Shown piece after piece: positions 43,018 to 63,308 of a stretch of DNA of 64,000 bases (position 1 is the stretch's first letter; each line of letters begins with the position of its first letter). The notes beneath the pieces were generated by a model. It was not told the origin of the DNA. It was given only the letters and a program-made list of their open reading frames with translations, and searched no databases. The DNA comes from Crocinitomicaceae bacterium (GTDB taxonomy: Bacteria > Bacteroidota > Bacteroidia > Flavobacteriales_D > Crocinitomicaceae): contig JAMLHA010000006.1 in assembly GCA_023957475.1 (NCBI GenBank), positions 1 to 64,000 of the forward strand, given 5' to 3'. A program made the translations under genes and the position numbers.

Positions 43018-43426
43018 GAGCCTACATTTGATTGAAAAGTCATGGTTTTGTCATAATGAGGGAAATAATCATTTTACACCATTATTTATAGTTATTCTTT
43101 ATAATTTTTTTAAAAAATGGGGAAAGAAAAGATAAAACCATTGTTTGATGATTTGTAACTTTTTATTTAATATTGCACATGAATAGGCGAAACATTTTAT
43201 CCCTTTAGAACGAAAATATTGGCTAAAGGGAAGTTTTGACTGAATATATAAAAGAGTTATGGGCAAGCTAAGACAAAAAAAGACACCTCGAACTATAATT
43301 AAACGGTTTCAAGAACCTCCTTAATTTTATTTTGCAAAACTGACGGCAAGTGAAGTCGAGCAATCACTTTAAAAAACAGGGTGTTTCTGAAAAACCAAAC
43401 GAGTAGGCAACTTTAATAAAGAAAAA
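43018..43426 (+). other. Non-coding stretch at the left boundary of the cassette array
   Basis: No convincing gene. It holds a hairpin (CCCTTTAG at 43201-43208 pairing with CTAAAGGG at 43223-43230), then the first cassette core GTTATGGGC at 43256-43264. Sequence left of 43256 does not form an attC-type inverted repeat, so this is either a degenerate attI-like or secondary insertion point. From 43257 onward it is the leader of the first cassette. Confidence 0.5.
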
Positions 43427-43990
43427 ATGGGATTAACGGACAAATCATTAAGCTTTTCATTACCATATAAAAAAGAAACTGTTCAAGAAGCGGTTAATTC
43501 AACTATAAATCAAATGAAAGGGTTTAAAATTAAATCTTCTAATAAACTTACTGGAGTAATTTCTATTCAAACAGGTGTGTCAGCTACTTCTTGGGGTGAA
43601 AACATTACCCTATCTTTAGATGAAATAAGCGATAATAAAACTCAAATTACAGTTACATCTTCCTCAAAAACGGGAATACTTGCAGGTGGTGCATTTACCC
43701 CAAAAAATCAAGCAAATATTGATTTAATTGTTAATAATATTGGAGCCTACTTGGAAGGTAAATCCATAAAGTCAAAATCGGGTTCTGAAAAATCAGCTTT
43801 AGTAACAGTGTTATTAATTATTTTTCTTGGATATTTCGGAGTTCATCGTTTTTATCTCGGAAAAACAAAAACAGGAGTTTTGTATTTATTCACTCTTGGT
43901 CTTTTAGGTTTAGGAGTTATTATAGACTTTTTTAGATTGATAATCGGAAACTTAACTGATAAAAATGGAAACCCTGTGATTAACTGGTAG
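43427..43990 (+). CDS. TM2-domain membrane protein (cassette 1)
   Basis: 187 residues. The N-terminal 115 residues form a soluble beta-rich domain I do not recognise (LSFSLPYKKETVQEAVNSTI onward). The C-terminal 65 residues are a TM2 domain: two helices separated by GYFGVHRFYLGKTKTGVLYL and IIDFFRLIIG, a motif found in many small membrane proteins of unknown role. ATG at 43427 follows 170 bp of cassette leader. It opens a compact three-gene set that ends at the first attC. Function unknown. Confidence 0.75.
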   Translation: MGLTDKSLSFSLPYKKETVQEAVNSTINQMKGFKIKSSNKLTGVISIQTGVSATSWGENITLSLDEISDNKTQITVTSSSKTGILAGGAFTPKNQANIDLIVNNIGAYLEGKSIKSKSGSEKSALVTVLLIIFLGYFGVHRFYLGKTKTGVLYLFTLGLLGLGVIIDFFRLIIGNLTDKNGNPVINW

Positions 43991-44010
43991 TTATTTTATT
44001 GATAATAGGT

Positions 44011-44424
44011 ATGTCTAAAAAAAACAAAACAACTAATAAAGTAAAGAATATTTTATACTTTGTAATATTTCCATTGTTGTTAGGGACTGTCATATATGTT
44101 TCTACAAGAACAAATAACATCTATTTCCTAAAAGCACTTAATTTGGAAAACAGCAAGATAAGTTTGCCAAACTGGATTATGTTTAATCTTCCTGATGGGC
44201 TTTGGGCTTTTTCATTTTCATCTTTAATTGCAATAATTTGGCAAAATTCAATAAGAAAAGAATATATGTTCTGGCTGATTTTTAGCTGTATTGTTTCAAT
44301 TATAATTGAAATATCTTACGGAACTTTTGACCTTTTAGATTTAATTTTTATCTTAATAGGTTTTCTAATTCCATTTATTTATTTTAAACATTTATATTTA
44401 CTAACAAAAATTCAAAATTTATGA
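44011..44424 (+). CDS. Small four-helix membrane protein, VanZ-like appearance (cassette 1)
   Basis: 137 residues from the ATG at 44011; an upstream TTG (43999) is less likely. Four hydrophobic segments, with NLPDGLWAFSFSSLIAIIW between helices 1 and 2 and YGTFDLLDLIFILIGFLIP near the end, reminiscent of VanZ-like proteins but not diagnostic. Its stop overlaps the next ATG by four bases (ATGA), so the two are translationally coupled. Confidence 0.5.
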   Translation: MSKKNKTTNKVKNILYFVIFPLLLGTVIYVSTRTNNIYFLKALNLENSKISLPNWIMFNLPDGLWAFSFSSLIAIIWQNSIRKEYMFWLIFSCIVSIIIEISYGTFDLLDLIFILIGFLIPFIYFKHLYLLTKIQNL

Positions 44425-44975
44425 AAAAAAATGTATTATCTGCAATCGCAGTTTCAACAATGCTATTTATAGCTTTTGCATCAGGTAGTTCTGATGAGTC
44501 GTCTGTATCATCGGACAATAATTCAACAACTTCTGAAGAAGTTAAAAATGAATCTAAATCCAATTGGTCATATAGCGAAAGCACAGACGAAATGGATGGA
44601 ACAACAAGAAAAGTTGCTTCTACTACTTCTACCAACTCCATTAAATTTGACTTTCCTTATGGTAATTCTGATTTTTCTTTAAATATTAGGAATTGGAATG
44701 GTGAAACTGATGTTTTTTTAACCTGTTCAAAATGTCAATTTATAGCAGGAGTTATGGGAGAAAAAACATATCGCATAAAATTTGATGATGAAACCCCAAT
44801 AGATGTTACGGCAAGTTTTTCTTCATCTGGCTCAGCCGATGTTGTGTTTTTAGGCAATGAAAAGAAACTAATTTCTAAATTAAAAACAGCTGAGAAATTA
44901 ATTATTGAACCTGAATTTTATGATGTGGGTAGGAAAACTGTAAGATTTGATGTAAAAGGGCTTGAATGGGAATAG
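44421..44975 (+). CDS. Secreted or lipid-free unknown protein with low-complexity linker (cassette 1)
   Basis: 184 residues. Signal-like N-terminus (VLSAIAVSTMLFIAFASGSS), a Ser/Glu/Asn-rich linker, then a domain of about 120 residues with a Trp-Ser-Tyr start (NWSYSESTDEMDGTTRK), FDFPYGNSDFSLNIR, a CSKCQF pair of cysteines, FDDETPIDVTASFSSSGSA and a FDVKGLEW ending. I recall similar uncharacterised proteins in other bacteria but can name no family. The stop lies 17 bp before the first attC. Confidence 0.6.
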   Translation: MKKNVLSAIAVSTMLFIAFASGSSDESSVSSDNNSTTSEEVKNESKSNWSYSESTDEMDGTTRKVASTTSTNSIKFDFPYGNSDFSLNIRNWNGETDVFLTCSKCQFIAGVMGEKTYRIKFDDETPIDVTASFSSSGSADVVFLGNEKKLISKLKTAEKLIIEPEFYDVGRKTVRFDVKGLEWE

Positions 44976-44991
44976 GGCTTTGAAATAGCCT

Positions 44992-45190
44992 GCCCATAAC
45001 AAGCAGTTTGGCAAAAGAGCGGGTTTAGTGCAAGGTTGAACACTTGTGCATTTAATCCGCAAAACCATTTTTCATTTGCTCCTTTTTGTAATTTAGCAAA
45101 AGAAAAAATGGTTTTGCTAACGTTGGTGTAAAATTGAAAGTTCCGTCTTTCTAATCCGCTCCTTCGCCAAGCTGCAAAACCGTTACATGC
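44992..45190 (+). other. attC site A (ends cassette 1, expanded to about 199 bp)
   Basis: Starts GCCCATAAC, ends CCGTTACATGC. Outer arms AAGCAGTTTGGCaaaAGAGCGG and CCGCTCcttCGCCAAGCTGC pair with extrahelical bases. It is longer than its siblings because of a second hairpin inside (45059-45072 GCAAAACCATTTTT with 45104-45117), which looks like an insertion or nested site. Confidence 0.82.
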
Positions 45191-45261
45191 AAGCGTAAAC
45201 AAACACTCCATCCATAAACTAAAGACAATAATTAAGACTACCCATTTCAAAATGCTAATTA

Positions 45262-45287
45262 TAGTATGTGGTATATTATGAATACTA
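45262..45287 (+). promoter_or_regulatory. Candidate operator for the R-M controller protein
   Basis: The inverted repeat TAGTAT...ATACTA spans the region just upstream of the -7 box TAGCTTTG (45292-45299), where a controller dimer could block or boost its own promoter. Confidence 0.4.
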
Positions 45288-45291
45288 AAGT

Positions 45292-45299
45292 TAGCTTTG
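45292..45299 (+). promoter_or_regulatory. Promoter -7 box TAGCTTTG for the controller gene
   Basis: Exact TAnnTTTG match, 18 bp before the ATG at 45318. Confidence 0.5.
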
Positions 45300-45317
45300 T
45301 GCAGACTTTGGTTAGCA

Positions 45318-45557
45318 ATGATTTCAGAACATGACATTTTAAATATTTTTGGTGAAAACGTTAGAAAATTTAGACGTTTACTTAATCTATCGCAAGAGGA
45401 TTTAGCTGACCGAGCAGATTTGCATAGAACTTACATCGGTATGATTGAACGTGCCGAAAAAAATATTACGCTTGTCAATATTCAAAAAATCGCTAATGCT
45501 TTAGAAGTCAATATTGAAGATTTACTAAAAATTAGCAATGATGAACATAAGCGTTAA
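45318..45557 (+). CDS. XRE-type helix-turn-helix controller (C) protein of an R-M system (cassette 2)
   Basis: 79 residues. HTH_3 fold spanning the whole protein (FGENVRKFRRLLNLSQEDLA, then DRADLHRTYIGMIERAEKN as recognition part). Size, position and the 20-bp overlap with the restriction gene match C proteins that delay restriction enzyme expression until methylation is complete. ATG at 45318 preferred over an upstream TTG at 45297, which overlaps the promoter box. Confidence 0.85.
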   Translation: MISEHDILNIFGENVRKFRRLLNLSQEDLADRADLHRTYIGMIERAEKNITLVNIQKIANALEVNIEDLLKISNDEHKR

Positions 45558-46458
45558 AGAACTTAATGAACTTTTCAAAAAAACAGGTATTGAAATTCTT
45601 GAACTGAGAGAAGATTTAAAATCTTCTGAAAAGTATGTAGATGTTAAAATTACTCAAGACAATGGTTTTGAGTGGATTGGTTCGATTCCATATTTTTATC
45701 GTAGAACAGGACTTTTCATTGAAACACCGAAAGATTTATTTACTCATTTAACAAAAATCAAGACTTTTTTTACAAAAGAAAATATTGCAAAATTTCAAAA
45801 GGAAGAAAAGAAATTTTGGCAGGAGAATATGAAAGGAAGCGATGTTACAATTCATTTCTTCAACGAACTTGTAAAAATGAAATGGACTTCTAGTTTTCCA
45901 CAAAACGATAATCCACAACGAAGAATACAAGATATTAAAGAAAAAGGATACACTATTGCTTCAAGAAGAAACGGAAGAAAAGCTGAAAGGCTTTTATTAC
46001 CAATTCCAAGAGGAGCAGAAACAGGATATGAAGTTTTTTCGTCAGCTTTCAGAAAGAAAGCTTTGAAAACGCTTAACGAAATAAATATTTACGAGTTAAG
46101 TTCAGCAAATAAACACGGTTTATTGCCCGACCACAAGTTCCCTGAAATTAGATGGGATGAAGAAACCCGAGCAGAAAATCCTGATGAAATGCCAGAAGCA
46201 GAAATTAAGCAAAAATTTCAATTATTAGATAACCAAAGAAACCAACAAAAACGAGAGGTTTGTAGAAAATGTTTTCAGACAGGAGAAAGGGGAAAACTGT
46301 TTGGATTAAACTATTTCTATCAAGGAACTGATAAATGGGACGCTCAAATTCCAAAAATTGGTAAAGAAGCAGAAAAAGGTTGTATCGGTTGCGGGTGGTA
46401 CGATATACAAGCGTGGAGAGAAAGTTTAAATAAGTTAGTTATTAAAAAAACAAAATAA
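45538..46458 (+). CDS. Type II restriction endonuclease, HNH-like (cassette 2)
   Basis: 306 residues. Assigned as the nuclease by position between the controller and the C5-methyltransferase and by an HNH/beta-beta-alpha-metal-like C-terminal part: SSANKHGLLPDHKFPEIRWD (about 200-219) with CRKC near 241 and a CIGCGWYD segment at the end, which could be zinc-binding. The family cannot be named from sequence. It may recognise the same site as the methyltransferase that follows 51 bp downstream. Overlaps the controller by 20 bp, typical of C-R pairs. Start 45538 or 45541. Confidence 0.65.
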   Translation: MMNISVKELNELFKKTGIEILELREDLKSSEKYVDVKITQDNGFEWIGSIPYFYRRTGLFIETPKDLFTHLTKIKTFFTKENIAKFQKEEKKFWQENMKGSDVTIHFFNELVKMKWTSSFPQNDNPQRRIQDIKEKGYTIASRRNGRKAERLLLPIPRGAETGYEVFSSAFRKKALKTLNEINIYELSSANKHGLLPDHKFPEIRWDEETRAENPDEMPEAEIKQKFQLLDNQRNQQKREVCRKCFQTGERGKLFGLNYFYQGTDKWDAQIPKIGKEAEKGCIGCGWYDIQAWRESLNKLVIKKTK

Positions 46459-46461
46459 AAC

Positions 46462-46492
46462 TTGCATACTATTATTAGCATTTGTATCTTTG
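46462..46492 (+). promoter_or_regulatory. Independent promoter of the methyltransferase gene
   Basis: TTG at 46462-46464, 20 bases, TATCTTTG at 46485-46492, 18 bp before the ATG. It would let the methyltransferase be made early, before restriction. Confidence 0.7.
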
Positions 46493-46509
46493 TTGCAAAG
46501 TTGTAAGAT

Positions 46510-47871
46510 ATGGAAAGAGAAGTAACCTTTGGTAGTGTGTGTTCAGGCATTGAAGCTGCACAGCTTGCTTTTAATCCTTTTGGATTAAAACAAGTGTGGA
46601 GTTCTGAAATTGCAGAATTTCCATGTAAAGTGTTAGCACATCATTTTCCCTATGTACCTAATGTAGGCGACATGACAAATATTCCGCAACTAATTTTAGA
46701 CAAAAAGCATATTGCACCCGATTTGTTTTGCGGAGGAACACCTTGTCAAGCCTTTTCATTAGCAGGATGGAAAAATGGCTTAGCAGACGAAAGAGGGCAA
46801 TTAACAATGACATTTATTGAGATTGCAAACGCAATTGATACAATAAGAGCCAAGGAGAACAAAAAACCTGCTATTGTGCTTTGGGAAAATGTTGAGGGAG
46901 TATTAAACGACAAAACAAATGCGTTCGGGAATTTTTTAGCTGGACTTGCAGGATATGATACAGAACTCATTGTAAATAAATGGTCAAAATCAGGCGTGAT
47001 TTTTGGAAAAACAAGGAATGTTGCTTGGCGTGTTATTGATGCTAAACATTTTGGGTTACCACAACAACGTAAGCGTTTGTATGTACTTGCTGGGGGAACA
47101 GATTTTAGACCTGACCAAATTCTATTTGAATTTGACGATAAAAATATATCAACCAAATTTAAACTTCAAAACTCGAAAAAAACAAACGATTTTGGCAATC
47201 TATTTGCCGAGTTTGAAACAATTGAAACTGATGAGGAACAAACTCTTTTTAAAGGAAAGGAAAAGTTTGAATTTTTTAGAAAATATACAGATTGCCTTTA
47301 TTCAGCATATGGCACAAAGTGGAATGGTAATGCTGCCGCATACAACGGTTCATTATATGTTGCACAAAATGACCGAATAAGGAGATTTACGCCATTAGAG
47401 TGTGAAAGACTTATGGGTTTCCCTGATAATTATACTTTAATTAATGGCAATAGCGACACCAATCGTTATCAAGCAGTTGGAAATTCTTGGGCTGTACCTG
47501 TTGTAAAATGGCTTGGAGAAAGAATTTCTAAATATTTTGAATTTGGACATTCTCAAATAATTGAATGGCAAAAAAGTGTAAGACAAGGAAAAGATAACAA
47601 AAACAAAAACTTATATTTACTCGGAGATGTTCATCAGATAGAAACGGGCAAATTCCTAAATGCATCTTTAATTCCAAATAATCCGCTTGAGGGTAATATA
47701 TCAGACATTGTGCAAGATGAAGATGTGCCTGAAAAATTTTATTTAAGCCCACAAGCTTGTAAAGGAATTTTAAGACGTAAAAATGAAAGAAACATTAAAA
47801 TGAACTCTGAATTAGAAAGATTAATGACAATAATAAGTGAAGAATTAAATTATCAAAACGCCAGCATGTAA
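46510..47871 (+). CDS. DNA cytosine C5-methyltransferase (cassette 2)
   Basis: 453 residues. All main Dcm-family motifs: SAM site (FGSVCSGIEAAQLAFNPFG, about 6-24), catalytic Cys in DLFCGGTPCQAFSLAGW (about 75-91), the ENV motif (IVLWENVEGVL, about 130), QQRKRLYVLA and the C-terminal GNSWAVPVVKWLGERI. It protects the host from the restriction enzyme encoded before it. An extra C-terminal 80 residues follow the core. The stop codon TAA (47869-47871) lies inside the attC start (GCATGTAAC), a common feature of integron cassettes. Confidence 0.92.
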   Translation: MEREVTFGSVCSGIEAAQLAFNPFGLKQVWSSEIAEFPCKVLAHHFPYVPNVGDMTNIPQLILDKKHIAPDLFCGGTPCQAFSLAGWKNGLADERGQLTMTFIEIANAIDTIRAKENKKPAIVLWENVEGVLNDKTNAFGNFLAGLAGYDTELIVNKWSKSGVIFGKTRNVAWRVIDAKHFGLPQQRKRLYVLAGGTDFRPDQILFEFDDKNISTKFKLQNSKKTNDFGNLFAEFETIETDEEQTLFKGKEKFEFFRKYTDCLYSAYGTKWNGNAAAYNGSLYVAQNDRIRRFTPLECERLMGFPDNYTLINGNSDTNRYQAVGNSWAVPVVKWLGERISKYFEFGHSQIIEWQKSVRQGKDNKNKNLYLLGDVHQIETGKFLNASLIPNNPLEGNISDIVQDEDVPEKFYLSPQACKGILRRKNERNIKMNSELERLMTIISEELNYQNASM

Positions 47872-48000
47872 CAAACAAATTGGCAATAGAGCCGGTGAAG
47901 TGCTTCTATTGAGCTTTTGTGCAAGGTTGAAGAGTAGTAATTCTATTCAATATTTGTGCTAAAAGTCGGCTCCATCGCCAATTTTCAACACGTTATCGGC
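47864..48000 (+). other. attC site B (ends cassette 2, 137 bp)
   Basis: GCATGTAAC ... CGTTATCGGC. Arms AAATTGGCaatAGAGCCG and CGGCTCcatCGCCAATTT pair with unpaired bases on one side. Loop holds AATATTTG (47949-47956), one base off TAnnTTTG. Confidence 0.9.
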
Positions 48001-48024
48001 AAGTATTTTCCAAGACACACCCGA

Positions 48025-48822
48025 ATGAAAATCCAAATTTTTAAATATAAAAACCCTCACCCAACTATTCACGAAATACGATTAGTTAAGTCGGACAGTG
48101 AAGCAGACATCTTGACTCACTTTGTTCCACCTCTTGGGAATCCGGAATTATTGTTTTATATAGACAATGAGTATCAAATAAAAAATGCCCTTTGCAAAAA
48201 AGGACTAATAAAAGGACAATACACCATTGCTCAAAAAATAGATTTTAACCCCAACTATCATTTTCTTTCTGTTTCACTTCACCCTTATGGATTAAAACAA
48301 TTATTCAATGTTGATGCCAGCGAATTTATAAATACCGTTGTAGATATTGAGAGCCACCCAATGACAACTTTCTTGTTATCGCTATTTCAAGGTAAAAAAG
48401 AAATAGACATTCCATTTATTGAACTACTTTCAAAAGAAATCAGTTCATTTTCTTTATACCCCATATCATCCATAACGAAAGATTATCTTCAAGCAATTAA
48501 AGAACAGAAAGACTTGTCTCATTCTGTTAAAGAACTTATTAAAGATAAGGGTATTGGTTTGCGGACGCTACAAAGAGCATTCAAAAATGAAACAGGATTG
48601 ACACCTAAAGAATATCTGAGCATCATAAGAATGAATAGAATTGAACTGCGTTTGAAAGATAAGCCCAACGTGTTTGAATTGATTTCAGATTTTGATTTTA
48701 CTGACCAATCTCATTTTATCAGAGAAGTGAAACATTGGCGGAATTATTCACCCAACGAACTGATAAAGAAAAAATTATTACTCTCCGACCAACTTCCTCA
48801 TCCCGACTTAATCCATCTTTGA
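48025..48822 (+). CDS. AraC-family transcriptional regulator (cassette 3)
   Basis: 265 residues from the ATG at 48025; the frame from 47956 would start inside the attC and is rejected. An N-terminal sensory domain of about 150 residues (unclassified) and a C-terminal double helix-turn-helix (GIGLRTLQRAFKNETGLTPK, about 195-214, and FDFTDQSHFIREVKHW). It is the first gene of the cassette that holds a serine hydrolase, a methyltransferase and a DinB protein and may regulate them. Confidence 0.82.
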   Translation: MKIQIFKYKNPHPTIHEIRLVKSDSEADILTHFVPPLGNPELLFYIDNEYQIKNALCKKGLIKGQYTIAQKIDFNPNYHFLSVSLHPYGLKQLFNVDASEFINTVVDIESHPMTTFLLSLFQGKKEIDIPFIELLSKEISSFSLYPISSITKDYLQAIKEQKDLSHSVKELIKDKGIGLRTLQRAFKNETGLTPKEYLSIIRMNRIELRLKDKPNVFELISDFDFTDQSHFIREVKHWRNYSPNELIKKKLLLSDQLPHPDLIHL

Positions 48823-48842
48823 TTTTGTCGCTTTTTTACAAT
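48818..48842 (+). repeat. Direct repeat copy 1, TTTGATTTTGTCGCTTTTTTACAAT
   Basis: 25 identical bases recur at 50253-50277, flanking the serine hydrolase gene. Copy 1 overlaps the end of the AraC gene. Confidence 0.8.
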
Positions 48843-48905
48843 AATCTCTTCAATAGACAGTTTACTTTTACCCATTCAATTGATTATTCATCAACAAACA
48901 ATAAA

Positions 48906-50231
48906 ATGAGAGCAAAATTTTTATCCACATTATTAGTCGGGACATTGTGCCAAATCGGGCTTGCTCAAAACTTTGATAAAACAAAGTTGGATAACTATTT
49001 CAATACACTTGAAACAAATAACAAGTTTATGGGAAGTGTTGCCGTTTCAAAAGACGGTGCAATTATTTACTCAAAGACCGTTGGATTTTCAGACATTGAA
49101 AACCATGTAAAAGCGAACGATACTACTAAATACAGAATAGGCTCAATTACCAAAACTTTTACAGCAGTATTGGTGCTAAAAGCTATGGAAGAAAATAAAA
49201 TCAAACTGAATGAAAAACTTTCTAAGTATTATCCAACCATTAAAAATGCAGACAAAATTACCATTGAAGATTTGCTTTATCACAGAAGCGGTATTCACAG
49301 TTTTACCGATGATGAAGATTATGAAAGTTGGAGTACACAATCCAAAAGCAAGGATGAATTAGTAAGCATTATCAGCAAAGGAGAAAGTGAGTTTGAACCG
49401 GGAAGCAAATTTGCTTACAGCAACCCAAATTTTATTTTGTTATCCTTTATTCTTCAGGATATTTACGGAAAATCGTATGCTGATTTATTGCAGGAAAAAA
49501 TAATAAAGCCGATAGGATTAAGCAATACCTATTTTGGTAATAAAATTGAAACAAAAAAGAACGAATGTTATTCCTATTCTTATACTAAAAACTGGAGTAA
49601 AGAAAGAGAAACAAATACTTCTATTCCAATGGGAGCCGGAGGAATAGTCTCCACATCAACCGATCTAACTAAGTTTTCCGAGGCACTTTTTTCAGGAAAA
49701 ATTATATCTGAAAAAAGCCTTGAAATGATGACGACCTTAAAAGATAATTTTGGTATGGGAATTTTTCCATTGCCATTTTATGAAACCAAAGGCTGGGGCC
49801 ATACAGGAGCAATAGATGGGTTTAGTTCTATGTTAGTCTATTTTCCTGAAAGTAAAGTTTCGTTTGCTTTAACCTCTAATGGAGTCAATTATAACAACAA
49901 TACAATTTCTATTGCTGTTTTAAGTGCTGTGTTTGATAAGCCTTACGATATTCCTGATTTCAAAACATACAATGTTACGTCAGAGGAATTAGATAAATAT
50001 TTAGGAACTTACTCAACAAATGATTTGCCTCTGAAATTGACCATTACCAAAGAAGGGACAACATTAATTGCACAGGCAACCGGGCAACAACAACTACCTC
50101 TTGAAGCAAGAGGGAAAAACGTATTTGCCTTTGATAGGGCAGGAATTGTTTTAGAGTTTAATCCCGAAAAGAAAACGGCTGTTCTCAAACAAGGCGGAGG
50201 GAAGTTTACGTTTACGAAAGAAAACAAATAA
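48906..50231 (+). CDS. Serine hydrolase of the beta-lactamase family (cassette 3)
   Basis: 441 residues from the ATG at 48906, which opens a signal peptide (KFLSTLLVGTLCQIGLAQ). The class C/DD-peptidase fold is shown by the SxxK motif in GSITKTFTAVLVLKAM, YSN in KFAYSNPNFILLSF and HTG in WGHTGAIDGFS. A C-terminal beta-barrel-like domain (KYLGTYSTND, then VLEFNPEKKTAVLK) follows. It is more likely an esterase or peptidase than a true beta-lactamase. The upstream frame from 48735 is rejected. Confidence 0.85.
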   Translation: MRAKFLSTLLVGTLCQIGLAQNFDKTKLDNYFNTLETNNKFMGSVAVSKDGAIIYSKTVGFSDIENHVKANDTTKYRIGSITKTFTAVLVLKAMEENKIKLNEKLSKYYPTIKNADKITIEDLLYHRSGIHSFTDDEDYESWSTQSKSKDELVSIISKGESEFEPGSKFAYSNPNFILLSFILQDIYGKSYADLLQEKIIKPIGLSNTYFGNKIETKKNECYSYSYTKNWSKERETNTSIPMGAGGIVSTSTDLTKFSEALFSGKIISEKSLEMMTTLKDNFGMGIFPLPFYETKGWGHTGAIDGFSSMLVYFPESKVSFALTSNGVNYNNNTISIAVLSAVFDKPYDIPDFKTYNVTSEELDKYLGTYSTNDLPLKLTITKEGTTLIAQATGQQQLPLEARGKNVFAFDRAGIVLEFNPEKKTAVLKQGGGKFTFTKENK

Positions 50232-50252
50232 AATCATACAAACATTGCAAAA

Positions 50253-50277
50253 TTTGATTTTGTCGCTTTTTTACAAT
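50253..50277 (+). repeat. Direct repeat copy 2
   Basis: Same 25-mer as 48818-48842, 1435 bp away, between the hydrolase and methyltransferase genes. Confidence 0.8.
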
Positions 50278-50324
50278 GAAACGATGCAAAATGAAGCGAC
50301 ATTTGCAACAGAAAATAATTTGAA

Positions 50325-51098: not shown

Positions 51099-51104
51099 TT
51101 TGCA

Positions 51105-51778: not shown

Positions 51779-51786
51779 AATAAACA

Positions 51787-54654: not shown

Positions 54655-54656
54655 AA

Positions 54657-55526: not shown

Positions 55527-55568
55527 TTTTTTAATTAAGTTACATTTGTCGTGTTAATCTGTTGAATA

Positions 55569-56249
55569 TTATTGCCCCAAACAGCTTCTATCTCGTTTAT
55601 AAACTACTCTCTTTCCGAGAAAATTCTCAATAGTCAATTTGTTCTTTTTTATGTTAAGTATTTCTCGCGTACCATAACTACCTTCAACCCATTTTATAAA
55701 AATTCTAGTGCCAATTATCTCTAAACTAAAAAATGGAAATGAATTAATATACACCCTCCCGTATTCACTTCCAAAGTTTCTTTCCTTGTTATATTCAAAT
55801 TGATGAGACTTTGTTTTCCAACACCCGACCATTTCGTTTTGAATTATTTTGAATTTTGTACTATCTACGGAAACAATACAACCAATATTTCGTTTATAAA
55901 CTACCCTCTTTCCGTTAACATTCTCAACCGTTAATTTGTTCTTTTTTATGCTAACTATTTTTTGCAGATTACTACCGCCTGTCAACTCAACCCATTCTAT
56001 AAAGATTTCATTGTCAATTATTTTCAAAATAAAAAATGGAGCTGAAGAATGAATTCTGCTTTTATATTCATATCCAAAATTTCTTTCCTTTTCATATTTG
56101 AATTGATAATACTTTGTGTTCCAACACCCGACCATTTCGTTTTGGATTAATCTGAATTTTGTGCTATCTACGGAAACAGTATTTGAAGTCTGTGCCTTGG
56201 CAAGTGACATAGACGCCATTAACATAACCGTAAAAACGAAGAATTTCAT
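55569..56249 (-). CDS. Secreted protein with two tandem copies of a lipocalin-like domain (cassette 7)
   Basis: 226 residues from the ATG at 56249 (signal KFFVFTVMLMASMSLAKAQ). After the signal there are two consecutive domains of about 100 residues that align throughout: SVDSTKFRLIQNEMVGCWNT and SVDSTKFKIIQNEMVGCWKT open them, KERNFG sits in both, and GKRVVYKRNIGC / GKRVVYKRDRSC close them. This is a recent internal duplication. The conserved GCW and beta-rich pattern suggest a lipocalin-like beta-barrel. No ligand inferred. Confidence 0.65.
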   Translation of the reverse strand: MKFFVFTVMLMASMSLAKAQTSNTVSVDSTKFRLIQNEMVGCWNTKYYQFKYEKERNFGYEYKSRIHSSAPFFILKIIDNEIFIEWVELTGGSNLQKIVSIKKNKLTVENVNGKRVVYKRNIGCIVSVDSTKFKIIQNEMVGCWKTKSHQFEYNKERNFGSEYGRVYINSFPFFSLEIIGTRIFIKWVEGSYGTREILNIKKNKLTIENFLGKRVVYKRDRSCLGQ

Positions 56250-56307
56250 ACTAAATTGCATTTCGAAGAGCGTGTATAAAAAAAGAGAATTGTACTGATT
56301 TAAGTCA

Positions 56308-59115
56308 TTAATTTTTTACAAATATTGCTGAATTTACATCTGTTTTTAGCATATAAATACCTAGTGATAATTGCTCAACATTCAGTATGTTTTTCCCTTT
56401 TTTAAGTGAGTAGGAACAAATTATTTTTCCGAGAACATCAACAATCTCAACATAGGAATCTGTGGCTAATTCCACAATCAATTCCGTTTTTGTCGGATTT
56501 GGATAAATTTTCCAGTCGTTTTGGTTAATTGATTTTAGCCCCAAATGAGAAATCGAGATGCAATCTGAAATTACAGAACACCCATCTTTTGTTATTTTTA
56601 CAGCATAAATGCCATTCGTTTCAGGAGTGAATGACTGTGAGATTGCTCCTGAAATTGGTTTATTACCATTGCAATTAATCCATTGATAACTTGCTCCCGT
56701 CTGATTAGATGTTATTGTTGTATCATCTATATTAATGGAGATATCAATGTAATCAATGTTGAGATTTAGTGTAACAATGCTGTCACAACCCTTAACATTT
56801 GTTAAAGCAAATGTAGCCGTGGTGTTGTCAGAAGTGTATTCAATGTTGTCAATCCAAGTGTATGAATTACAAGCCGATATATTATCAATTCCTGTATTGG
56901 AATAATTAACTTCTAATTTCAAAAATATAATACTGTCACACCCAATATTGTTCTGAAAACTTACCAAAGCAGTATTATTGCTCTCAGTATATGTCTCTCC
57001 GTTAATCCAAGTAAAGCTATCACAAGCAATTACCTCCTGCACAATACTATCTGCTGTTCCAATTGTTAGATTTAATGTAATTATACTATCACAACCAAGA
57101 GCATTTGGAAGTAAATAAGTGTCTATAATGGAGTTATAATAGGTAACACCATTTATCCAAGTAAAACTATCACACGCTGCTACCGTTTGAATGGAACTAG
57201 ATGAATTTAAAATTGTTAAATCCAATTTGACGACACTATCACAACCATTCATGTTTGTTAAAGTATGTGTTGCTAATGAATTATCAGCATAATAGCTATT
57301 TCCGTCTATCCATGTCATACTGTCACAGGCAACAACGGTCATTACTGTGGTGTCGGAATAATTGACGGTTAATTTTAAAGACTTTACAAGATTACAACCT
57401 GTTGGATTTGAGATTGTAAATAGTGCAGTATCATTATCTGCTGTGTAAGTATTTCCGTCTATCCATGTAAAACTATTACATACTATAATTGTATCTGTTG
57501 CATAACTCGTATATGACAGACTTAAATCAAGATAGACGGTACTGTCACACCCTGTTGCGTTTGGTATTATAACAGACGCTGTGCTATTACTAGAAGTGTA
57601 AGTAATTCCATCTATCCACTTGAGGCTATCGCAAGCAAAAACGACATCTGTCCCGACAGAATTACATGTTAGTTTAACAACAAAAATATCATTCGATGAC
57701 GCTTTTGAGGTTAAATTTTTTACGGCTGTTCCTGGGTCGAAGTCAGCTGTTCCACTATAATAACCAGCTATAACAACATCTCCTCTTCCCGTTACTGCAA
57801 TAGCTTTTCCATAATCGTCTGATGCACCGCCCATCGCTTTTGCAAATATATATTCTCCATTCCTATCTAGTTTCAGCACAAAAACATCTTGTGTTACAGT
57901 TACATTATCATGTGTAGGTTTGGACTTTATTATTGAAGTTCCAACTCCGGGATTAAAATCAACCTCGCCTTTAAATGTCCCTGTTACATAAACATTAATC
58001 GAATCATCTAATGCAATTCCGTAACCATAATCACCAAAATGACTTCCTATTTTCTTAGCCCATAGATAATCACCATTTTCATCAAGTTTTGCAACGAAAA
58101 CATCACTGGAGCTTGCTGTACTTGTCAGAATATTACCTCCTATACCAGGATTAAAGTCCACTGTATTCCAAAAGTAACCAGAAATAAATACATTTTCTAA
58201 AGTATCAACGGCTATGGCAGAACCTGTTCCCCTGCCATAAAAACTTTTTGCCCATACAAAATCCCCATTCGTATCAAGTTTTACAATAAACACATCCTGA
58301 CTACCTTCTGAAGTTAATTCAAAAACACCTACTCCTGGGTCAAAATCAACAGTACCACGAAAGGAGCCTGTTGTATAAACAAAGCCATTATTATCAGCCG
58401 TTATACCATTTCCCATATCAGTGAAACCTCCTCCAAATTTTCTTGCCCATTTAAAGTGTCCATCAGTATCTAAGTTCAAAATAAAAATATCTTTATCTCC
58501 TGCTGCAGTTAGTACAGATTCTTCAATTCCAGGGTCAAAGTCAACAGATAACGAAAAATATCCCGTTACATAAATATTGTTATTCATTACCTTTATAGAT
58601 TGCCCAACATCACTATTACCTCCTCCCATCGTTTTGACCCAAACGAAATTTCCGTCAATGTCTAGTTTTACAATAAAAATATCGTCTCCACCATTTGAAG
58701 TTATTGACAGCTCTCCTTCTCCTGGGTCAAAATCAACAGGCCCTGTTCTGAAAGAGCCTGTTATATAAACATTCTGGTTGTCATCAACACTAATGGAATA
58801 CCCACTGTCAAAACTTGCTCCTCCGATTGATTTCGCCCAAATCAAATTACCAAAAGCATTTAGCTTTTGAATAAAAATATCGTAATTACCAGCACTTGTT
58901 AACGTCATTACGGTACTGCTTGGGTCAAAATCACCTGACTCATTAAAATAGCCTGTGGTGTAAACATTTCCCAAATCATCAATAGTCGTAGAAAAACCTT
59001 GGTCGTTTTCTATTCCACCCATAGATTTTGCCCATTCATAACTTTGGGAAACTGCTGATAATGAAATGAAAAATAATATAATTAATAAACTTAATTTACG
59101 TAAAAGCATTTTCAT
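56308..59115 (-). CDS. SBBP-type beta-propeller surface protein with T9SS type A sorting signal (cassette 7)
   Basis: 935 residues with a signal peptide. Seven propeller-like repeats of about 60 residues (WAKSMGG, then VYVTGSF, then VDFDPG) span about 30-490. Six repeats of a second type, CDSFTWINGxxYT with GCDSIxxLxL, follow to about 830. The end (IYPNPTKTELIVEL, ...GIYMLKTDVNSAIF) is a type A sorting domain. It is exported by T9SS and displayed, and is much larger than a normal cassette gene, reading in the opposite direction to the array. Confidence 0.85.
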   Translation of the reverse strand: MKMLLRKLSLLIILFFISLSAVSQSYEWAKSMGGIENDQGFSTTIDDLGNVYTTGYFNESGDFDPSSTVMTLTSAGNYDIFIQKLNAFGNLIWAKSIGGASFDSGYSISVDDNQNVYITGSFRTGPVDFDPGEGELSITSNGGDDIFIVKLDIDGNFVWVKTMGGGNSDVGQSIKVMNNNIYVTGYFSLSVDFDPGIEESVLTAAGDKDIFILNLDTDGHFKWARKFGGGFTDMGNGITADNNGFVYTTGSFRGTVDFDPGVGVFELTSEGSQDVFIVKLDTNGDFVWAKSFYGRGTGSAIAVDTLENVFISGYFWNTVDFNPGIGGNILTSTASSSDVFVAKLDENGDYLWAKKIGSHFGDYGYGIALDDSINVYVTGTFKGEVDFNPGVGTSIIKSKPTHDNVTVTQDVFVLKLDRNGEYIFAKAMGGASDDYGKAIAVTGRGDVVIAGYYSGTADFDPGTAVKNLTSKASSNDIFVVKLTCNSVGTDVVFACDSLKWIDGITYTSSNSTASVIIPNATGCDSTVYLDLSLSYTSYATDTIIVCNSFTWIDGNTYTADNDTALFTISNPTGCNLVKSLKLTVNYSDTTVMTVVACDSMTWIDGNSYYADNSLATHTLTNMNGCDSVVKLDLTILNSSSSIQTVAACDSFTWINGVTYYNSIIDTYLLPNALGCDSIITLNLTIGTADSIVQEVIACDSFTWINGETYTESNNTALVSFQNNIGCDSIIFLKLEVNYSNTGIDNISACNSYTWIDNIEYTSDNTTATFALTNVKGCDSIVTLNLNIDYIDISINIDDTTITSNQTGASYQWINCNGNKPISGAISQSFTPETNGIYAVKITKDGCSVISDCISISHLGLKSINQNDWKIYPNPTKTELIVELATDSYVEIVDVLGKIICSYSLKKGKNILNVEQLSLGIYMLKTDVNSAIFVKN

Positions 59116-59171
59116 AGCTGTATTGTTTAAGAATAAAGTAATGATACAAATTTAATATTAATTAACTGCTG

Positions 59172-59203
59172 TTTGTGAAACGAGAGAAAAAAATGTATTT
59201 TTG
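59172..59203 (+). promoter_or_regulatory. Promoter for the truncated 59222 gene
   Basis: TTTG at 59172-59175, 20 bases, TATTTTTG at 59196-59203, 18 bp before the ATG. Confidence 0.7.
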
Positions 59204-59221
59204 AACTTCATTATAATAACT

Positions 59222-59890
59222 ATGGCAACATTTAAGTCAAAAGAAGAATTACTAAAAGCGATTGAAGTCGGTTTTGAGGCGATTAACCAAGGAACAATTA
59301 ATTTGGAACAGATGGACGAATTGGTAAATTCTGCACGTGATTTGTACGAGCGAACGGTTATCATTCGTCATAAATCGTTGGAATTACTTGTTGCAAATCA
59401 GTCTGTTAGCTTTGAAAAAGACGTTCACGAAACCGTTGCGCCTGTTATAGAACACGCAACACCAGCGTTTGCAACAGAAGAATTGATTATTGAAGAACCG
59501 CTTACGCCAAGCGAAGACGAAACCCCGATTTTAGTTGCCAATGATGTGGTAGAAGACAAGTCGGAGTTTACTTCCTCTTTTTCGGTGCAAGACAAAGAAG
59601 ACGGTTTTGCGTTTGATTTATTTGAGCAGCCAATCGAAGACGAACCGCAAAATCTTTTTGCAGGCGAAGTTGTTGAAGAAACGTTTGTGCAAGAAGAACC
59701 GCTAGCGGAAATTCACGCCGAAGAACCTGAGGTGGAAATGCCTAAAGCGATTCACGAAATCATGCAGGAAAATATTGGTGAATTTTCAGTTGAGGCGATT
59801 TTGGAAGAAGAGCAACGTACTGAAAAAGAATATGTTGAAGATACTTTTTCCGAACCAACGTTTGAAAATCCTGTGGCAGAAACACCTGCA
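59222..59890 (+). pseudogene. 5' part of an acidic conserved gene, cut off near 59890 (cassette 7)
   Basis: The first ~220 residues (ATFKSKEELLKAIEVGFEAI, DELVNSARDLYERTVIIRHK, then an acidic linker) look like a real conserved Bacteroidota protein of unknown function. After about residue 222 the reading switches to Cys/Ser-rich sequence that is the antisense of the opposite gene. The missing C-terminus would be a small alpha-helical domain. The gene keeps its own promoter. Confidence 0.6.
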
Positions 59891-61317
59891 TCAAACTGCG
59901 TTGATTGTGCGGTTAGTTTATTTACTTCTTTGGAAAGTTCAAAACGGTCACTTGTTCGAGTGTTCGTTTCTGTCTCTTGGTTGGTTTCGTGTTCTGAAAA
60001 AGAAAGTTCTTCTTGTGTTTTTTTGTTACGGTGTGTTTTTTCTTTTTTCTCGCCTGCTAAAACATTTTCGATATGTGCAATTTCATCTGCCTCATAACGC
60101 ACTAATTCTTGACGAATAACATTGGCGTAACCAGTTCCCAAAATCTGTATGTATGATTTTTCGGGATTATCCGCCATGAGTTGGTGCAACAAACGACAAT
60201 GCGAAACAGCTTCTTCTTTCGGTCTACAAATTACATCTTCTTGTATAGCATTGTTTATCGAAATTAAAGTATTTCCGATTAAAACAACTTTTTCACGTTT
60301 AGCGTACAGTGCCAATTCTTTGGAAATACTCGTAATTTTTGCGTCAATTTTCTTTACCGCAAAAAGAACATTTATATTATTTCCTTGAATACCGAGATTA
60401 CTGAAAACCGTTTTTGTAGGGAGTGACAAGGTTTCATAATAGGCAACAGTTAATTCTTCGGCAAAAGGTTCATTAATGTATCTTTCATAAGCTAAGTTTA
60501 ACTCCTCATCAATATTTTTAGGTGAAATGTTGTTCCTGCCTAAAAATTCTGTTTCGATAGCATTTTTGAGTGATGTTTTATATTCATCAGCCGACATTTT
60601 AGCTTTTTTGAGTTGTTGCGTTTGAAATTCATACGTTGAAAGAATTTCTTCTTTTGCGGACTGATATAAATTTAATTCCTCCAAGAGCTCCTCGTAATGC
60701 GTATCGGGAACAGGTGGCGGAGGTGTTGGCTCATTGGTTGCTTTTTTCGGTAAAGGAAAAATTGGTTTGGGCAATATCACCCGAGATTTGTTCCAATATT
60801 CCAGTAATTCTTCTTTTTTAATCGGTTCAGGTTTAGACGCTAAAGTTGTTACTTGTATTTTCTTTAGTATTCCAATAAATTTTGTAACCAACACTAAATC
60901 ATTGGTCAATGGATTAATTTTGTGTATAATAAAATGTGCAATCGTATTATCCCAAAAAATCGATTCATGCTCGATTAAATCAAATAACGGATTATCGGGT
61001 TCAATATCGGGAATTTCATCGGGGTCATTTTTTGAGAGTATTTCAATCGCTACATCAAAAGCAGGAAATAAATCTAACAAGTCTGATTTTTCATGAATAG
61101 CATCTGCATTATTATCCAAATAACCTTGGGCAATGCTTTCAAAAGCAGTTAACGATTCGTTTTCTTCGCTTGCTTGAGTTAGTTCTTCTATGAGCGTACT
61201 CGCAGGTTCGACATCGTATTTTACGAGAAATTTTTGTATAATTTCCGTTGAAACTTTAGCAATATTACCAACTACTAAATGCGGGTAATAAGAGTGTTGA
61301 ACTTTTTTATCTGACAT
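59890..61317 (-). pseudogene. 5' part of a large unknown gene, cut off near 59890 (cassette 7)
   Basis: About 476 residues from the ATG at 61317 read as real protein (YPHLVVGNIAKVSTEII at the start, a Pro-rich linker, coiled coils, and the segment RYEADEIAHIENVLAGEKKE followed by Lys/Glu-rich coil). A similar segment is known to me from very large uncharacterised Bacteroidota proteins linked to contractile injection or toxin loci, but I cannot confirm this. Beyond about 59890 the frame is only the antisense of the plus-strand gene, so it is 3' truncated. Confidence 0.5.
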
Positions 61318-61503
61318 AGCCGTACGTTTTTGTTGTTTAGCAACTAGATTTTAGAAACAAATTTACGATTTATTTTGAATAATAAAAAATATATCTCGAA
61401 AAAAACTTACCAGCTTAGGGCATCATTAAGCTCCTTGAATTTCTGTGATTTATAAAAAGATTAGGGGAATATATTCAAAATAAATACAAGAAATTTCCAA
61501 CGA

Positions 61504-61640
61504 ACCACTAACAAGGCGTTCAGAGCAAAAGCCAAAAAACGCTTCGTGTTTAAGATTTTTGTTTAAATTTGAGTTCGTGCTTTGTGCTTGAAATCTTCGC
61601 AAGAATGGCTTCTGCTCCGAGCGCCTAAAACGTTATGCAC
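61504..61640 (+). other. attC site G (ends cassette 7, 137 bp)
   Basis: ACCACTAAC ... CGTTATGCAC. Arms AAGGCGTTCAGAGCAaAAGCCA and TGGCTTCTGCTCCGAGCGCCT pair. Loop has the exact box TAAATTTG (61564-61571, offset 60). Confidence 0.92.
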
Positions 61641-61722
61641 AAGCAAATTTAACAATTAAAAATTTGTATTTTATGAAAATAATTCGTAATATTTGAAAAA
61701 TAAACATAAAAAAACGAACATT

Positions 61723-62076
61723 ATGGGACGTATTTGGAATGGCGAGAATGCCAAATTAAAACTAGATGAGCTTTATGTTCTTTCCGATGGTGAGAGAATA
61801 AAGCAAGCACAGATGATTCGAACTGACCTGAAAGCATGGGCGCTGGAAAACTTCTGTTTCTCTGATTTACAAAAAAGATGTTTAGAAAGTATTTCTGAAA
61901 CTTATCTTGAAGAAGTCGGACAAATGATAGCAAGAGCTATCGAAAAAAGGTATCCTATAGAACTTGCTGTTACTGATGACACTTTGCCAGTAGCACAAAG
62001 AGTTAGAAAAGGCGGTGTAGATGTGGGATGGTCTAAGGATGGTGGATTTTATATTAGAATCTGGTTTGAATGGTAA
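61723..62076 (+). CDS. Small acidic-basic protein of unknown function (cassette 8)
   Basis: 117 residues. It starts at the ATG at 61723 (RIWNGENAKLKLDELYVLS); a TTG at 61693 is less likely. A helical middle (IKQAQMIRTDLKAWALENF, CLESISETYLEEVGQMIARA) and a short tail (VDVGWSKDGGFYIRIWFEW). No family recognised. A strong terminator follows 12 bp after the stop. Confidence 0.5.
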   Translation: MGRIWNGENAKLKLDELYVLSDGERIKQAQMIRTDLKAWALENFCFSDLQKRCLESISETYLEEVGQMIARAIEKRYPIELAVTDDTLPVAQRVRKGGVDVGWSKDGGFYIRIWFEW

Positions 62077-62088
62077 TTAATTTTAATT

Positions 62089-62123
62089 AAAGCACAACAA
62101 TCTCAAAATTGTTGTGCTTTTTT
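62089..62123 (+). terminator. Strong terminator within cassette 8
   Basis: Perfect 13-bp stem AAAGCACAACAAT / ATTGTTGTGCTTT followed by six T, separating the two genes of the cassette. Confidence 0.85.
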
Positions 62124-62135
62124 ATTTGAATAATC

Positions 62136-63167
62136 ATGAAATATTTTATATCTTTTACCCTACTAATATTTACTTATTCTTTGAGTTTTAGTCAAAATAA
62201 GTATAAAACAAGTTTTGAAACTAACAATGATACAACACTGATTATTTTAAAAGTAAATTTAGATGGTAATAACTATCGTTTTATTTTTGATACAGGTGCA
62301 CAAATTAGTGTCATTTTCAATCAAAGTAATATTGACTTATCAAAATCAAGAACCGTGAAGGCTATTGACGTGTATGGTAAATCTTCTGATGTTTCTATAA
62401 TTAGAAAAAAAATCACTATACCTTCGATTAAGGCAGCAAATAAAGGTTATTGTCTAATTATGAATAATAAGCCTGCTTTTATGGATTATCTGAATATTGA
62501 CGGTATTATTGGCGCTGATTTAATAAACAAATATGATTGGAAAATTGACTTAAAGAAATTGGAAGTAATCCGTATAGATAAAAAGGATAAACCTAATTCT
62601 GATAGCTTATTTACCATCCCCACTCATTACGAAAATGAACGCACTAGAGTAATTGATACTTATGTAATAAATAATGGAGATACTTCTTCTTACACTATTG
62701 ACACAGGTGCAAGTTTAATTATAGCAGCCTATAAACCTGATTCTTTAATCAAAACCAACCAAGCAAATATACTTCAATCATACACCTATAATTTCACTAT
62801 AACAAGTAGTTATCTTGAAGATACTTCATATATTAGCATGGAAAATATTAAAATAGGGGATCTTAATATTGAAGAAATTCCATTTTCAAATCGACGTAAA
62901 ATAGGTACTCATAACACTATTGGCTTGTCTTTTTTCAAACCCTTTGGAGAGTTTTATATTTTAAATTCTAATAATATTGTTCTAACTCCAAAAGTAGAAA
63001 AATATCAATATTATTTCCCGAACTTCAAAATAATTAACGGTACAATAATGTCTCAATATCAAAAGATTAATGAACCAATATCTCCTTCTTATTTAGGAAA
63101 AAAAATTAATGAGTCAGACGAATTCAAAGTTACAGACATAAACGTTCCAATAACTAAATACAGATAA
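62136..63167 (+). CDS. Retropepsin-like aspartic protease with two active-site motifs (cassette 8)
   Basis: 343 residues with a signal peptide (ISFTLLIFTYSLSFSQ). Two pepsin-retropepsin motifs lie in one chain: FDTGAQISVIF at about 51 and IDTGASLIIAA at about 189, each followed by a glycine-containing strand (IDGIIGADL near 128 and a second near 266), so it can fold as a single-chain dimer like pepsin. Members of the gag-asp/aspartyl protease family in Bacteroidota are periplasmic. Substrate unknown. Confidence 0.72.
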   Translation: MKYFISFTLLIFTYSLSFSQNKYKTSFETNNDTTLIILKVNLDGNNYRFIFDTGAQISVIFNQSNIDLSKSRTVKAIDVYGKSSDVSIIRKKITIPSIKAANKGYCLIMNNKPAFMDYLNIDGIIGADLINKYDWKIDLKKLEVIRIDKKDKPNSDSLFTIPTHYENERTRVIDTYVINNGDTSSYTIDTGASLIIAAYKPDSLIKTNQANILQSYTYNFTITSSYLEDTSYISMENIKIGDLNIEEIPFSNRRKIGTHNTIGLSFFKPFGEFYILNSNNIVLTPKVEKYQYYFPNFKIINGTIMSQYQKINEPISPSYLGKKINESDEFKVTDINVPITKYR

Positions 63168-63174
63168 TAAGCCA

Positions 63175-63308
63175 GTGCATAACAAGTCATCTTGTGCAAG
63201 CTGGGTAAATCGCTTCGATTTACCATTTATCGAAAGAAAAATAGTTGTATCTTCGTGTCTAAGTTTAACGTAAAGAGCCAGCCTGCACAAGGTGCCAAAC
63301 CGTCAAAC
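63175..63308 (+). other. attC site H (ends cassette 8), with atypical core
   Basis: GTGCATAAC ... CCGTCAAAC. Arms TCATCTTGTGCAaGCTGG and CCAGCcTGCACAAGGTGc pair and the loop matches site C, with TATCTTCG at 63248-63255 (offset 73). The end is GTC instead of GTT at the crossover. Confidence 0.85.

What the first reader, a model, noticed from the sequence alone, without database searches (positions are those of the whole stretch)
43257..63302. Integron cassette array with eight attC-like sites in a Bacteroidota chromosome
Eight imperfect inverted repeats with ..AAC and GTT.. ends, extrahelical bases and uniform orientation separate unrelated gene sets. For every one of the eight cassettes the first 9-10 bases are the reverse complement of the bases opening the attC at its other end. 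This is seen directly and follows from circular-cassette recombination; repeats alone would not give it. Sites B, C, D, E, G are 136-139 bp. No integrase is present, so it may be a distal array or CALIN. Integrons are well described in Gammaproteobacteria and less so in Bacteroidota, so the site family, its loops and its host are of real interest.
Basis: partly seen in the sequence, partly recalled or inferred. Interest (0 to 1): 0.95.

Follow-up and report, generated by a model that had tools for sequence, protein, structure and literature searches.

The report
Integron with a patchless integrase
This stretch of a Bacteroidota chromosome is a row of eight gene cassettes separated by palindromic sites, one of six such rows headed by the same start site in this genome, and it is likely filled and shuffled by a recombinase that lacks the protein part so far held to be essential for integrons.

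Summary
Window 43256-63304 is an array of eight cassettes, each starting with 9-10 bases complementary to the start of the attC-like site at its other end. The array begins with an attI copy (about 43143-43256). That element occurs six times in the genome, once directly behind a 360-aa tyrosine recombinase on contig C2. One window cassette (54031-54730) recurs in the C2 array: 1 mismatch in 709 bp, with identity ending at or within 6 bases of the predicted G|TTA. A covariance model gives 53 hits in the genome (E <= 0.1); no IntI over NCBIfam's cut-off was found. The recombinase family has 58-59 residues where 28 of 28 compared IntI proteins have 100, so the IntI insertion is missing. Around 80 family genes, 100 sites lie downstream in array orientation and 2 upstream. 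Of 296 genomes of the phylum (this one included), 79 of 88 with the recombinase have the sites, against 67 of 208 without it. Site stems keep pairing through compensating changes; 102 of 137 lack a bulge in their first 18 columns. I read this as an integron variant of Bacteroidota. Recombination, and a folded single strand as its substrate, are inferred; nothing was tested at the bench.

The parts
43143..43256 (+). attI copy (array head); it opens with the sequence of the last five codons of the integrase gene; crossover G|TTA at 43256
   Evidence: 6 copies in the genome, the other five 88-94% identical to this one; all six align up to GTTA and then part; one copy lies directly behind the integrase gene on C2
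43257..45182 (+). cassette 1: DUF805 RNA leader, TM2-domain protein, two ORFs without Pfam match; its attC is 44998-45184
44991..45192 (+). attC-like site B
45183..47992 (+). cassette 2: type II restriction-modification genes (control protein, REase, C5 methylase)
47861..48002 (+). attC-like site C
47993..51770 (+). cassette 3: AraC-type regulator, beta-lactamase-fold hydrolase, protein without Pfam match, DinB-like protein
51640..51780 (+). attC-like site D
51771..53103 (+). cassette 4: MORN-repeat-like protein (below the Pfam cut-off)
52970..53113 (+). attC-like site E
53104..54031 (+). cassette 5: GDSL-type hydrolase
53898..54041 (+). attC-like site F
54032..54730 (+). cassette 6 (DUF4468 protein): same cassette as at about C2:24082-24780, 1 mismatch in the 709 bp identical block 54025-54733
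54655..54740 (+). attC-like site G (short, 69 nt AAC..GTT)
54731..61632 (+). cassette 7: 6.9 kb with several ORFs, most on the - strand; unusually long
61501..61642 (+). attC-like site H
61633..63302 (+). cassette 8: small protein + aspartyl-protease-like protein; 61628-62081 is 76% identical to the start of a cassette in the C2 array
63172..63312 (+). attC-like site I, cut at its crossover by an insertion sequence
63304..64000 (+). left end of an insertion sequence (the transposase frame continues past the window)

Best explanation
The region is an attI-headed array of eight gene cassettes, one of six attI-headed arrays in this Bacteroidota genome, and is likely filled and shuffled in trans by a tyrosine recombinase, encoded on contig C2, that lacks the IntI-specific insertion. 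Shown: the sites, the cassette-end pairing, the six attI copies, the recombinase directly upstream of one of them, the same association around family members in other genomes, and one cassette present in two arrays with breaks at the crossover. Inferred: the recombinase binds a folded bottom strand of attC (stem kept by compensating changes, near-constant hairpin length, 3-4 nt spacer asymmetry, strand-biased mismatches) and joins it at G|TT to attI or to another attC, so that cassettes enter and leave as circles. Inferred too: position-specific mismatches and the lopsided central spacer do the strand-marking work that bulged extrahelical bases do for IntI.
For: Cassette-end pairing 75 of 80 bases, reached by 2 of 40320 permutations. 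Genome-wide, 38 of 47 consecutive elements match in 7 or more bases, including 5 of 6 attI heads with their first attC (51 of the 53 model hits entered, the two weakest left out, 2 more dropped for want of sequence). 53 hits in the genome at E <= 0.1. Shared cassette: 709 bp, 1 mismatch, identity ends 6 bases before the crossover on the left and after GTTA on the right. Six attI copies. Around 80 family genes: 100 sites downstream in array orientation in 320,543 bp, 2 upstream in 647,175 bp; 3 and 1 in the other orientation. 46 of 59 consecutive pairs there match in 8 or more bases against 2.8% for shuffled partners; an attI crossover (7 or more bases) lies within 450 bp of the gene's end in 30 of the 41 loci with a site, at 94-108 bp in 24 of them. 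In 296 genomes, this one included: recombinase with sites 79 of 88, without it 67 of 208 (Fisher 7e-21); IntI with sites 33 of 84, without IntI 113 of 212. 18 of 19 stem pairs show compensating changes. Insertion missing: 58-59 residues in 79 of 79 family proteins, 100 in 28 of 28 IntI.
Against: No recombination was observed. 9 of 47 and 13 of 59 neighbours fail the pairing test, and one attI head (C28:199409) does not pair with the next site. 67 genomes have sites without a family recombinase at E <= 1e-50, and 9 of 88 have the recombinase without sites. The recombinase piece on C21 (72 aa, cut by the contig end behind the patch region) matches the family best (87.4 bits) but IntI almost as well (84.0), so a patch-bearing enzyme there is not excluded. 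The bottom strand folds better in only 26 of 37 own and 63 of 100 other sites. 35 of 137 stems do have a gap in the first 18 columns, 8 of 137 in the first nine, and no classical attC set was run as a control. Cassette 7 is 6.9 kb with most ORFs reversed. The shared cassette was found in none of the 398 other genomes searched, so transfer between species is not shown at the DNA level. The structure model is of middling confidence (pLDDT 79.6, pTM 0.49).
Confidence: 0.78

Rival explanations
1. A CALIN or ordinary integron array laid down by a classical IntI (with patch) that is now lost from this lineage, or is the enzyme cut off at the end of contig C21.
For: The sites share the classical plan (R''-L''-L'-R', AAC/GTT). 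IntI over the cut-off exists in the phylum, 84 of 296 genomes. The C21 piece resembles IntI almost as much as the family.
Against: No IntI over the cut-off in this genome. Of the 84 genomes with IntI over the cut-off, 1 is listed as same class (G095), where 52 of 70 listed same-class genomes have R1-type sites (my count of the listing). R1-type sites go with the patchless recombinase (79 of 88) and are rarer with IntI (33 of 84 against 113 of 212). In 30 IntI genomes 12 have R1-type sites (29 hits); in G154 (4 of 4 hits) and G340 (6 of 8) these lie on the contig of the patchless recombinase, not on IntI's. One weak hit in G338 is on IntI's contig, 19 kb away.
Confidence: 0.1
2. The same array, but the recombinase works on double-stranded attC sites (Xer-like), the hairpin being only a by-product of two inverted binding sites.
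For: The recombinase resembles XerA and other Xer enzymes and lacks the IntI insertion held essential for folded substrates (PMC7790495, passages).
Against: Stem sequences differ widely while pairing is kept (18 of 19 pairs with compensating changes); a double-strand binder should conserve sequence instead. AAC..GTT is 122-127 nt in 99 of 132 sites, and the spacer asymmetry is 3-4 nt in 128 of 132.
Confidence: 0.17
3. Intergenic palindromes (REP-like or terminator-like repeats) in a gene island, with no recombination.
For: Sites lie between genes, and a simple motif is no more frequent in the window than in shuffles.
Against: Cassette-end complementarity, attI heads, strict placing downstream of the recombinase and the duplicated cassette with breaks at the crossover.
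Confidence: 0.02

Closest known systems
Classical integron (IntI / attI / attC), including chromosomal integrons
   Same: Cassettes in one orientation, attC with complementary 9-10 nt ends, AAC/GTT boxes, an attI at the head, crossover at G|TT, many unrelated cassettes including defence genes
   Different: Integrase lacks the IntI insertion (58-59 against 100 residues between the catalytic K and H-x-x-R); 102 of 137 stems without a bulge in 18 columns; integrase gene points into the array; six attI heads for one intact integrase gene of this family
CALIN (attC cluster lacking an integrase)
   Same: No integrase gene beside the window array
   Different: The window array has its own attI head, and an integrase is elsewhere in the same genome
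Integron-like subgroup of simple tyrosine recombinases (PMC8138268, passages read)
   Different: In the passages read it calls the insertion essential for integron function and ties no patchless member to cassette arrays
XerA / XerH-type recombinases
   Same: Closest solved folds together with IntI4
   Different: The sites are palindromic elements of about 124 nt bounding cassettes, not single short dif-like sites (dif length recalled)
Delta-attI gene cassettes of mobile integrons (PMC12901181, abstract read)
   Same: On C28 an attI lies at the end of a cassette-like 1.26 kb unit present twice
   Different: Here the attI is of the new type and heads new arrays

Membership tests
Classical integron | Integrase IntI with the additional domain (patch, I2 helix) | tested here: not met
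   For the C2 recombinase: TIGR02249 195 bits against a cut-off of 265; 58-59 residues against 100 in 28 of 28 IntI. No match over the cut-off in the genome. The C21 piece is too short to judge
Classical integron | attI next to the integrase gene, receiving cassettes | tested here: met
   C2 copy with its crossover 100 bp after the stop; attI crossover found in 30 of the 41 relatives' loci that have a site
Classical integron | Array of cassettes whose first 9-11 bases pair with the start of their own attC | tested here: met
   9-11 nt as stated in PMC2727003 (passage)
Classical integron | Bulged extrahelical bases in every attC stem | tested here: inconclusive
   102 of 137 stems have no gap in the first 18 columns and 129 of 137 none in the first nine; 35 of 137 have one. 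No classical attC set was put through the same script
Classical integron | Unpaired central spacer differing between strands, and a terminal part of its own | tested here: met
   Right spacer 3-4 nt longer than left in 128 of 132 sites
Classical integron | Bottom-strand, single-stranded attC recombination | not testable with these tools
   Only indirect: compensating changes, mismatches that leave a G.T wobble on the bottom strand 185 to 53
Classical integron | Cassette mobility | tested here: met
   One cassette in two arrays, breaks at the crossover; comparative evidence only, no movement observed
CALIN | attC cluster without integrase nearby | tested here: met
   No integrase match near the array on contig C30; the nearest PF00589 match there is at 146960. 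An attI head is present
CALIN | Not a platform of its own (no attI head; my wording, not a published definition) | tested here: not met
   attI copy at 43143-43256
Xer/dif-type modules | Short double-stranded dif-like sites (recalled) | tested here: not met
   AAC..GTT is 122-127 nt in 99 of 132 sites

The most novel reading that the evidence does not exclude
A second, widespread class of integron in the phylum Bacteroidota uses an integrase without the I2 insertion to recombine folded attC hairpins that mostly lack bulged extrahelical bases. Integrase and site would have lost, or never had, the two matching halves of the classical recognition, and one integrase gene serves several dispersed attI heads in the same genome.
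Probability: 0.55. Interest if true: 0.95.

Novelty: new variant of a known kind. Interest (0 to 1): 0.87.

Why it matters
The integron field holds that recombination of a folded single strand became possible through the I2 insertion, which docks extrahelical bases (PMC7790495, passages). Detection leans on the same feature: intI genes were selected by this domain in PMC2426708 (passage), and PMC9668308 (passage) says that IntegronFinder overlaps the general recombinase profile with a second profile (its description was cut off in the passage I saw; from memory it is the IntI-specific region). A patchless family tied to hairpin sites that occur in 146 of 296 sampled genomes of the phylum would mean that a large cassette reservoir has been overlooked. 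It would also turn the question of how single-strand recombination arose into a direct experiment on living enzymes.

Tried and rejected
Led nowhere or was set aside. A short motif alone is not enriched in the window (17 matches against 12.8 in shuffles). A first stem detector without spacers missed most sites. Rfam gave no attC family match; its one hit in the window, DUF805 RNA, lies inside cassette 1, and no DUF805 match was found in six other loci of this genome. The shared cassette was sought in 399 genomes of the order, this one included, and found only in this one, twice. The first permutation run had one start off by one base; one search is the corrected one. The IntI pattern caught 7 of 30 loci; one search took 28 of 30 with a pattern that asks for patch-like motifs, so the 28 are chosen for having the patch. 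Of the two left out, L096 also shows the insertion, and for L078 no frame was found. Two of the 80 family loci had internal stops and were left out of the spacing count (78 plus the C2 protein). The spacing counts were spoilt by a loose pattern and are replaced by the alignment. A first bulge count (14 of 137) allowed up to 6 ungapped mismatches and was too low; the alignment count (35 of 137) replaces it, and I lowered the novel case from 0.60 to 0.55. For the C21 piece I lowered the best explanation from 0.80 to 0.78 and raised the first rival from 0.08 to 0.10. The tree keeps 28 IntI rows as one clade (100/99) apart from the family, but the program warns of long branches between the Xer rows and IntI, so I draw no root or sister claim from it. 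The co-location count (46 sites; 40 downstream, 40 in array orientation) used 30 listed recombinase rows and 55 listed site rows, picked because most share contigs; it illustrates and is not a test. Six of those 46 lie upstream of the nearest recombinase (42-56% identical members), which may be inverted platforms or other arrays. Homologues carry a precomputed Pfam label, PF22823, that my Pfam scans did not return; I did not see where it lies.

Papers. Outline with abstract: PMC12901181. Passages only: PMC9024848, PMC8618304, PMC9668308, PMC7790495, PMC8352920, PMC2426708, PMC2727003, PMC8138268, PMC8876359. Others: search listings and the starts of abstracts only. Searches for a Bacteroidota integron with a patchless integrase. 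None of the listed titles and abstract starts describes one, but one search listed 20 of 454 papers and one search listed 25 of 29, and the library holds no preprints and few subscription papers, so prior description elsewhere is possible.
Full report
Eight inverted-repeat sites lie in one orientation between 44998 and 63304. A stem detector with a shuffle control finds seven of them in the window, and nothing in 1-43000 on either strand. The eighth was missed because its R' reads GTC: an insertion sequence starts at that point.

The array has a head. Window 43143-43256 is one of six copies of an element in this genome, the other five being 88-94% identical to it. All six agree up to GTTA and then part. 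The copy at C2:17229 has its crossover 100 bp behind the stop of a 360-aa tyrosine recombinase. Copies on C28 and C5 carry 35-83 bases of the 3' end of such a gene in front of them. Five of the six heads pair with the first attC behind them; the sixth, at C28:199409, does not. I therefore read the element as attI, and the genome as having one intact recombinase of this family and six attI-headed arrays. A second recombinase is cut off at the end of contig C21, again followed by attC-type sites. Its 72 residues match the patchless family best but IntI almost as well (87.4 against 84.0 bits), and the patch region is not on the contig, so I cannot say which it is.

Cassettes have moved between arrays. 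Window 54025-54733 and C2 (L017:18075-18783) are the same sequence with one mismatch; identity begins 6 bases before the crossover at one end and stops after GTTA at the other. The neighbours differ on both sides. Cassette 8 has a 76% identical counterpart over 455 bp in the C2 array. The shared cassette occurs in none of 398 other genomes of the order, which fits a rare accessory gene but leaves transfer between species unshown.

The site family is widespread and travels with this recombinase. A covariance model from 21 sites of this genome gives 53 hits in it at E <= 0.1, hits in 45 of 58 relatives at E <= 0.01 (46 of 59 with this genome), and in 146 of 296 genomes of the phylum at E <= 1e-4 (this one included). 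In those 296, the recombinase at E <= 1e-50 is present in 88, and 79 of these have sites, against 67 of 208 without it; IntI over the curated cut-off is in 84, of which 33 have sites, against 113 of 212 without it. Around 80 recombinase genes from titled genome records, among them Flavobacterium, Kaistella, Pedobacter and Algoriphagus, the stem detector finds 100 sites downstream in array orientation and 2 upstream, and 3 and 1 in the other orientation. Upstream sequence was twice as long as downstream (647,175 against 320,543 bp). 41 of the 80 have at least one downstream site in array orientation. 46 of 59 neighbouring sites pair in 8 or more bases, against 2.8% for shuffled partners, and in 30 of the 41 loci an attI crossover was found, at 94-108 bp after the gene's match in 24 of the 30. 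In 15 of the 80 the contig ends within 340 bp behind the gene, and in two relatives exactly at GTTA, as expected if attI is repeated in those genomes.

The C2 recombinase is not an IntI. It scores below the IntI cut-off, in two separate pieces (195 against 265 bits). In an alignment all 79 family proteins used have 58-59 residues between the catalytic lysine strand and H-x-x-R where 28 of 28 IntI have 100 (the 28 of 30 loci were picked with patch-like motifs). The nearest solved structures are XerA, XerC-like and IntI4. Against IntI4 the sequence match breaks there, 25 residues facing 67. The predicted model (pLDDT 79.6, pTM 0.49) shows a 17-residue linker between two helices at that place. 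The protein has an N-terminal segment of about 75 residues for which my Pfam scan gave no match.

The site differs too, though less sharply than I first counted. Stem sequences vary widely, yet 18 of 19 pairs show compensating changes, which speaks for a folded strand as the substrate. 102 of 137 stems have no gap in their first 18 columns, and 129 of 137 none in the first nine; 35 of 137 do have one. The commoner irregularities are mismatches at set positions, mostly ones that leave a G.T wobble on the bottom strand (185 against 53 of the opposite kind), and a central spacer 3-4 nt longer on the right in 128 of 132 sites. The classical literature assigns strand choice to extrahelical bases and the central spacer (PMC2727003, passages) and their docking to the I2 insertion (PMC7790495, passages). 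Here the insertion is missing and bulges are not a constant feature, which hangs together, but no classical attC set was run as a control. Folding energies favour the bottom strand only modestly (26 of 37 own, 63 of 100 other sites).

How it most likely works: the recombinase is made on C2, acts on attI copies in cis and in trans, and joins circular cassettes at G|TT through their folded attC; attC x attC exchange releases them. Cargo includes a restriction-modification set in the window and a type VI retron-like pair in the first C2 cassette, so the arrays hold defence genes among others. The chemistry, the strand and the circles are inferred, not shown.

Against what is known: it works like an integron, but as a member of the classical family its C2 enzyme fails the integrase criterion, and the extrahelical-base criterion is inconclusive. 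IntegronFinder 2.0 reported, for Bacteroidetes proper, one complete integron in Salinibacter ruber, after only integrase-without-cassette elements in the earlier study (PMC9024848, passages), and intI genes have been selected by the additional domain (PMC2426708, passage). A survey of tyrosine recombinases noted that the insertion is not fully conserved in an integron-like subgroup but called it essential for function (PMC8138268, passages). Eight full-text searches listed no title or abstract start that describes patchless integrons; one search showed only 20 of 454 papers. I file it as a new variant of a known kind.

Noticed in passing
window 63304; C29:110949; C29:118636: An insertion sequence (same left end in all three, transposase frame continuing past the window) starts right after CG|T of attC-type right arms in all three copies seen in the loci searched, as if it targeted attC crossovers (attC-targeting IS are known from memory).
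   Followed up: partly
L021:9375-10633 and L022:3795-5053 (C28): A 1.26 kb unit that starts in an attC and ends at an attI crossover is present twice at 97% identity, like a cassette whose site is an attI.
   Followed up: partly
L018 (C21), 4547-4765: The C-terminal 72 residues of a second recombinase, cut by the contig end, with a different attI-like palindrome and attC-type sites behind it; too short to tell whether it has the patch.
   Followed up: partly
L017:11963-14209: First cassette of the C2 array carries a type VI retron-like HTH + reverse transcriptase pair and a D12 methylase.
   Followed up: partly
window 43345-43413: DUF805 RNA (RF03081) lies in the leader of cassette 1, in front of a TM2-domain gene.
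   Followed up: partly
phylum sample: Classical IntI over the cut-off in 84 of 296 genomes of the phylum, 83 of them outside the window's class; more than the literature passages that I read suggest.
   Followed up: no
G338:C13:150550: One weak R1-type site (E 2.8e-4) lies on the same contig as an IntI gene, 19 kb away.
   Followed up: no
G009:C138 / L169: A same-family relative matches a contig titled Crocinitomicaceae by length (13388 bp) and by the attI sequence, so the host is probably of or near that family.
   Followed up: partly
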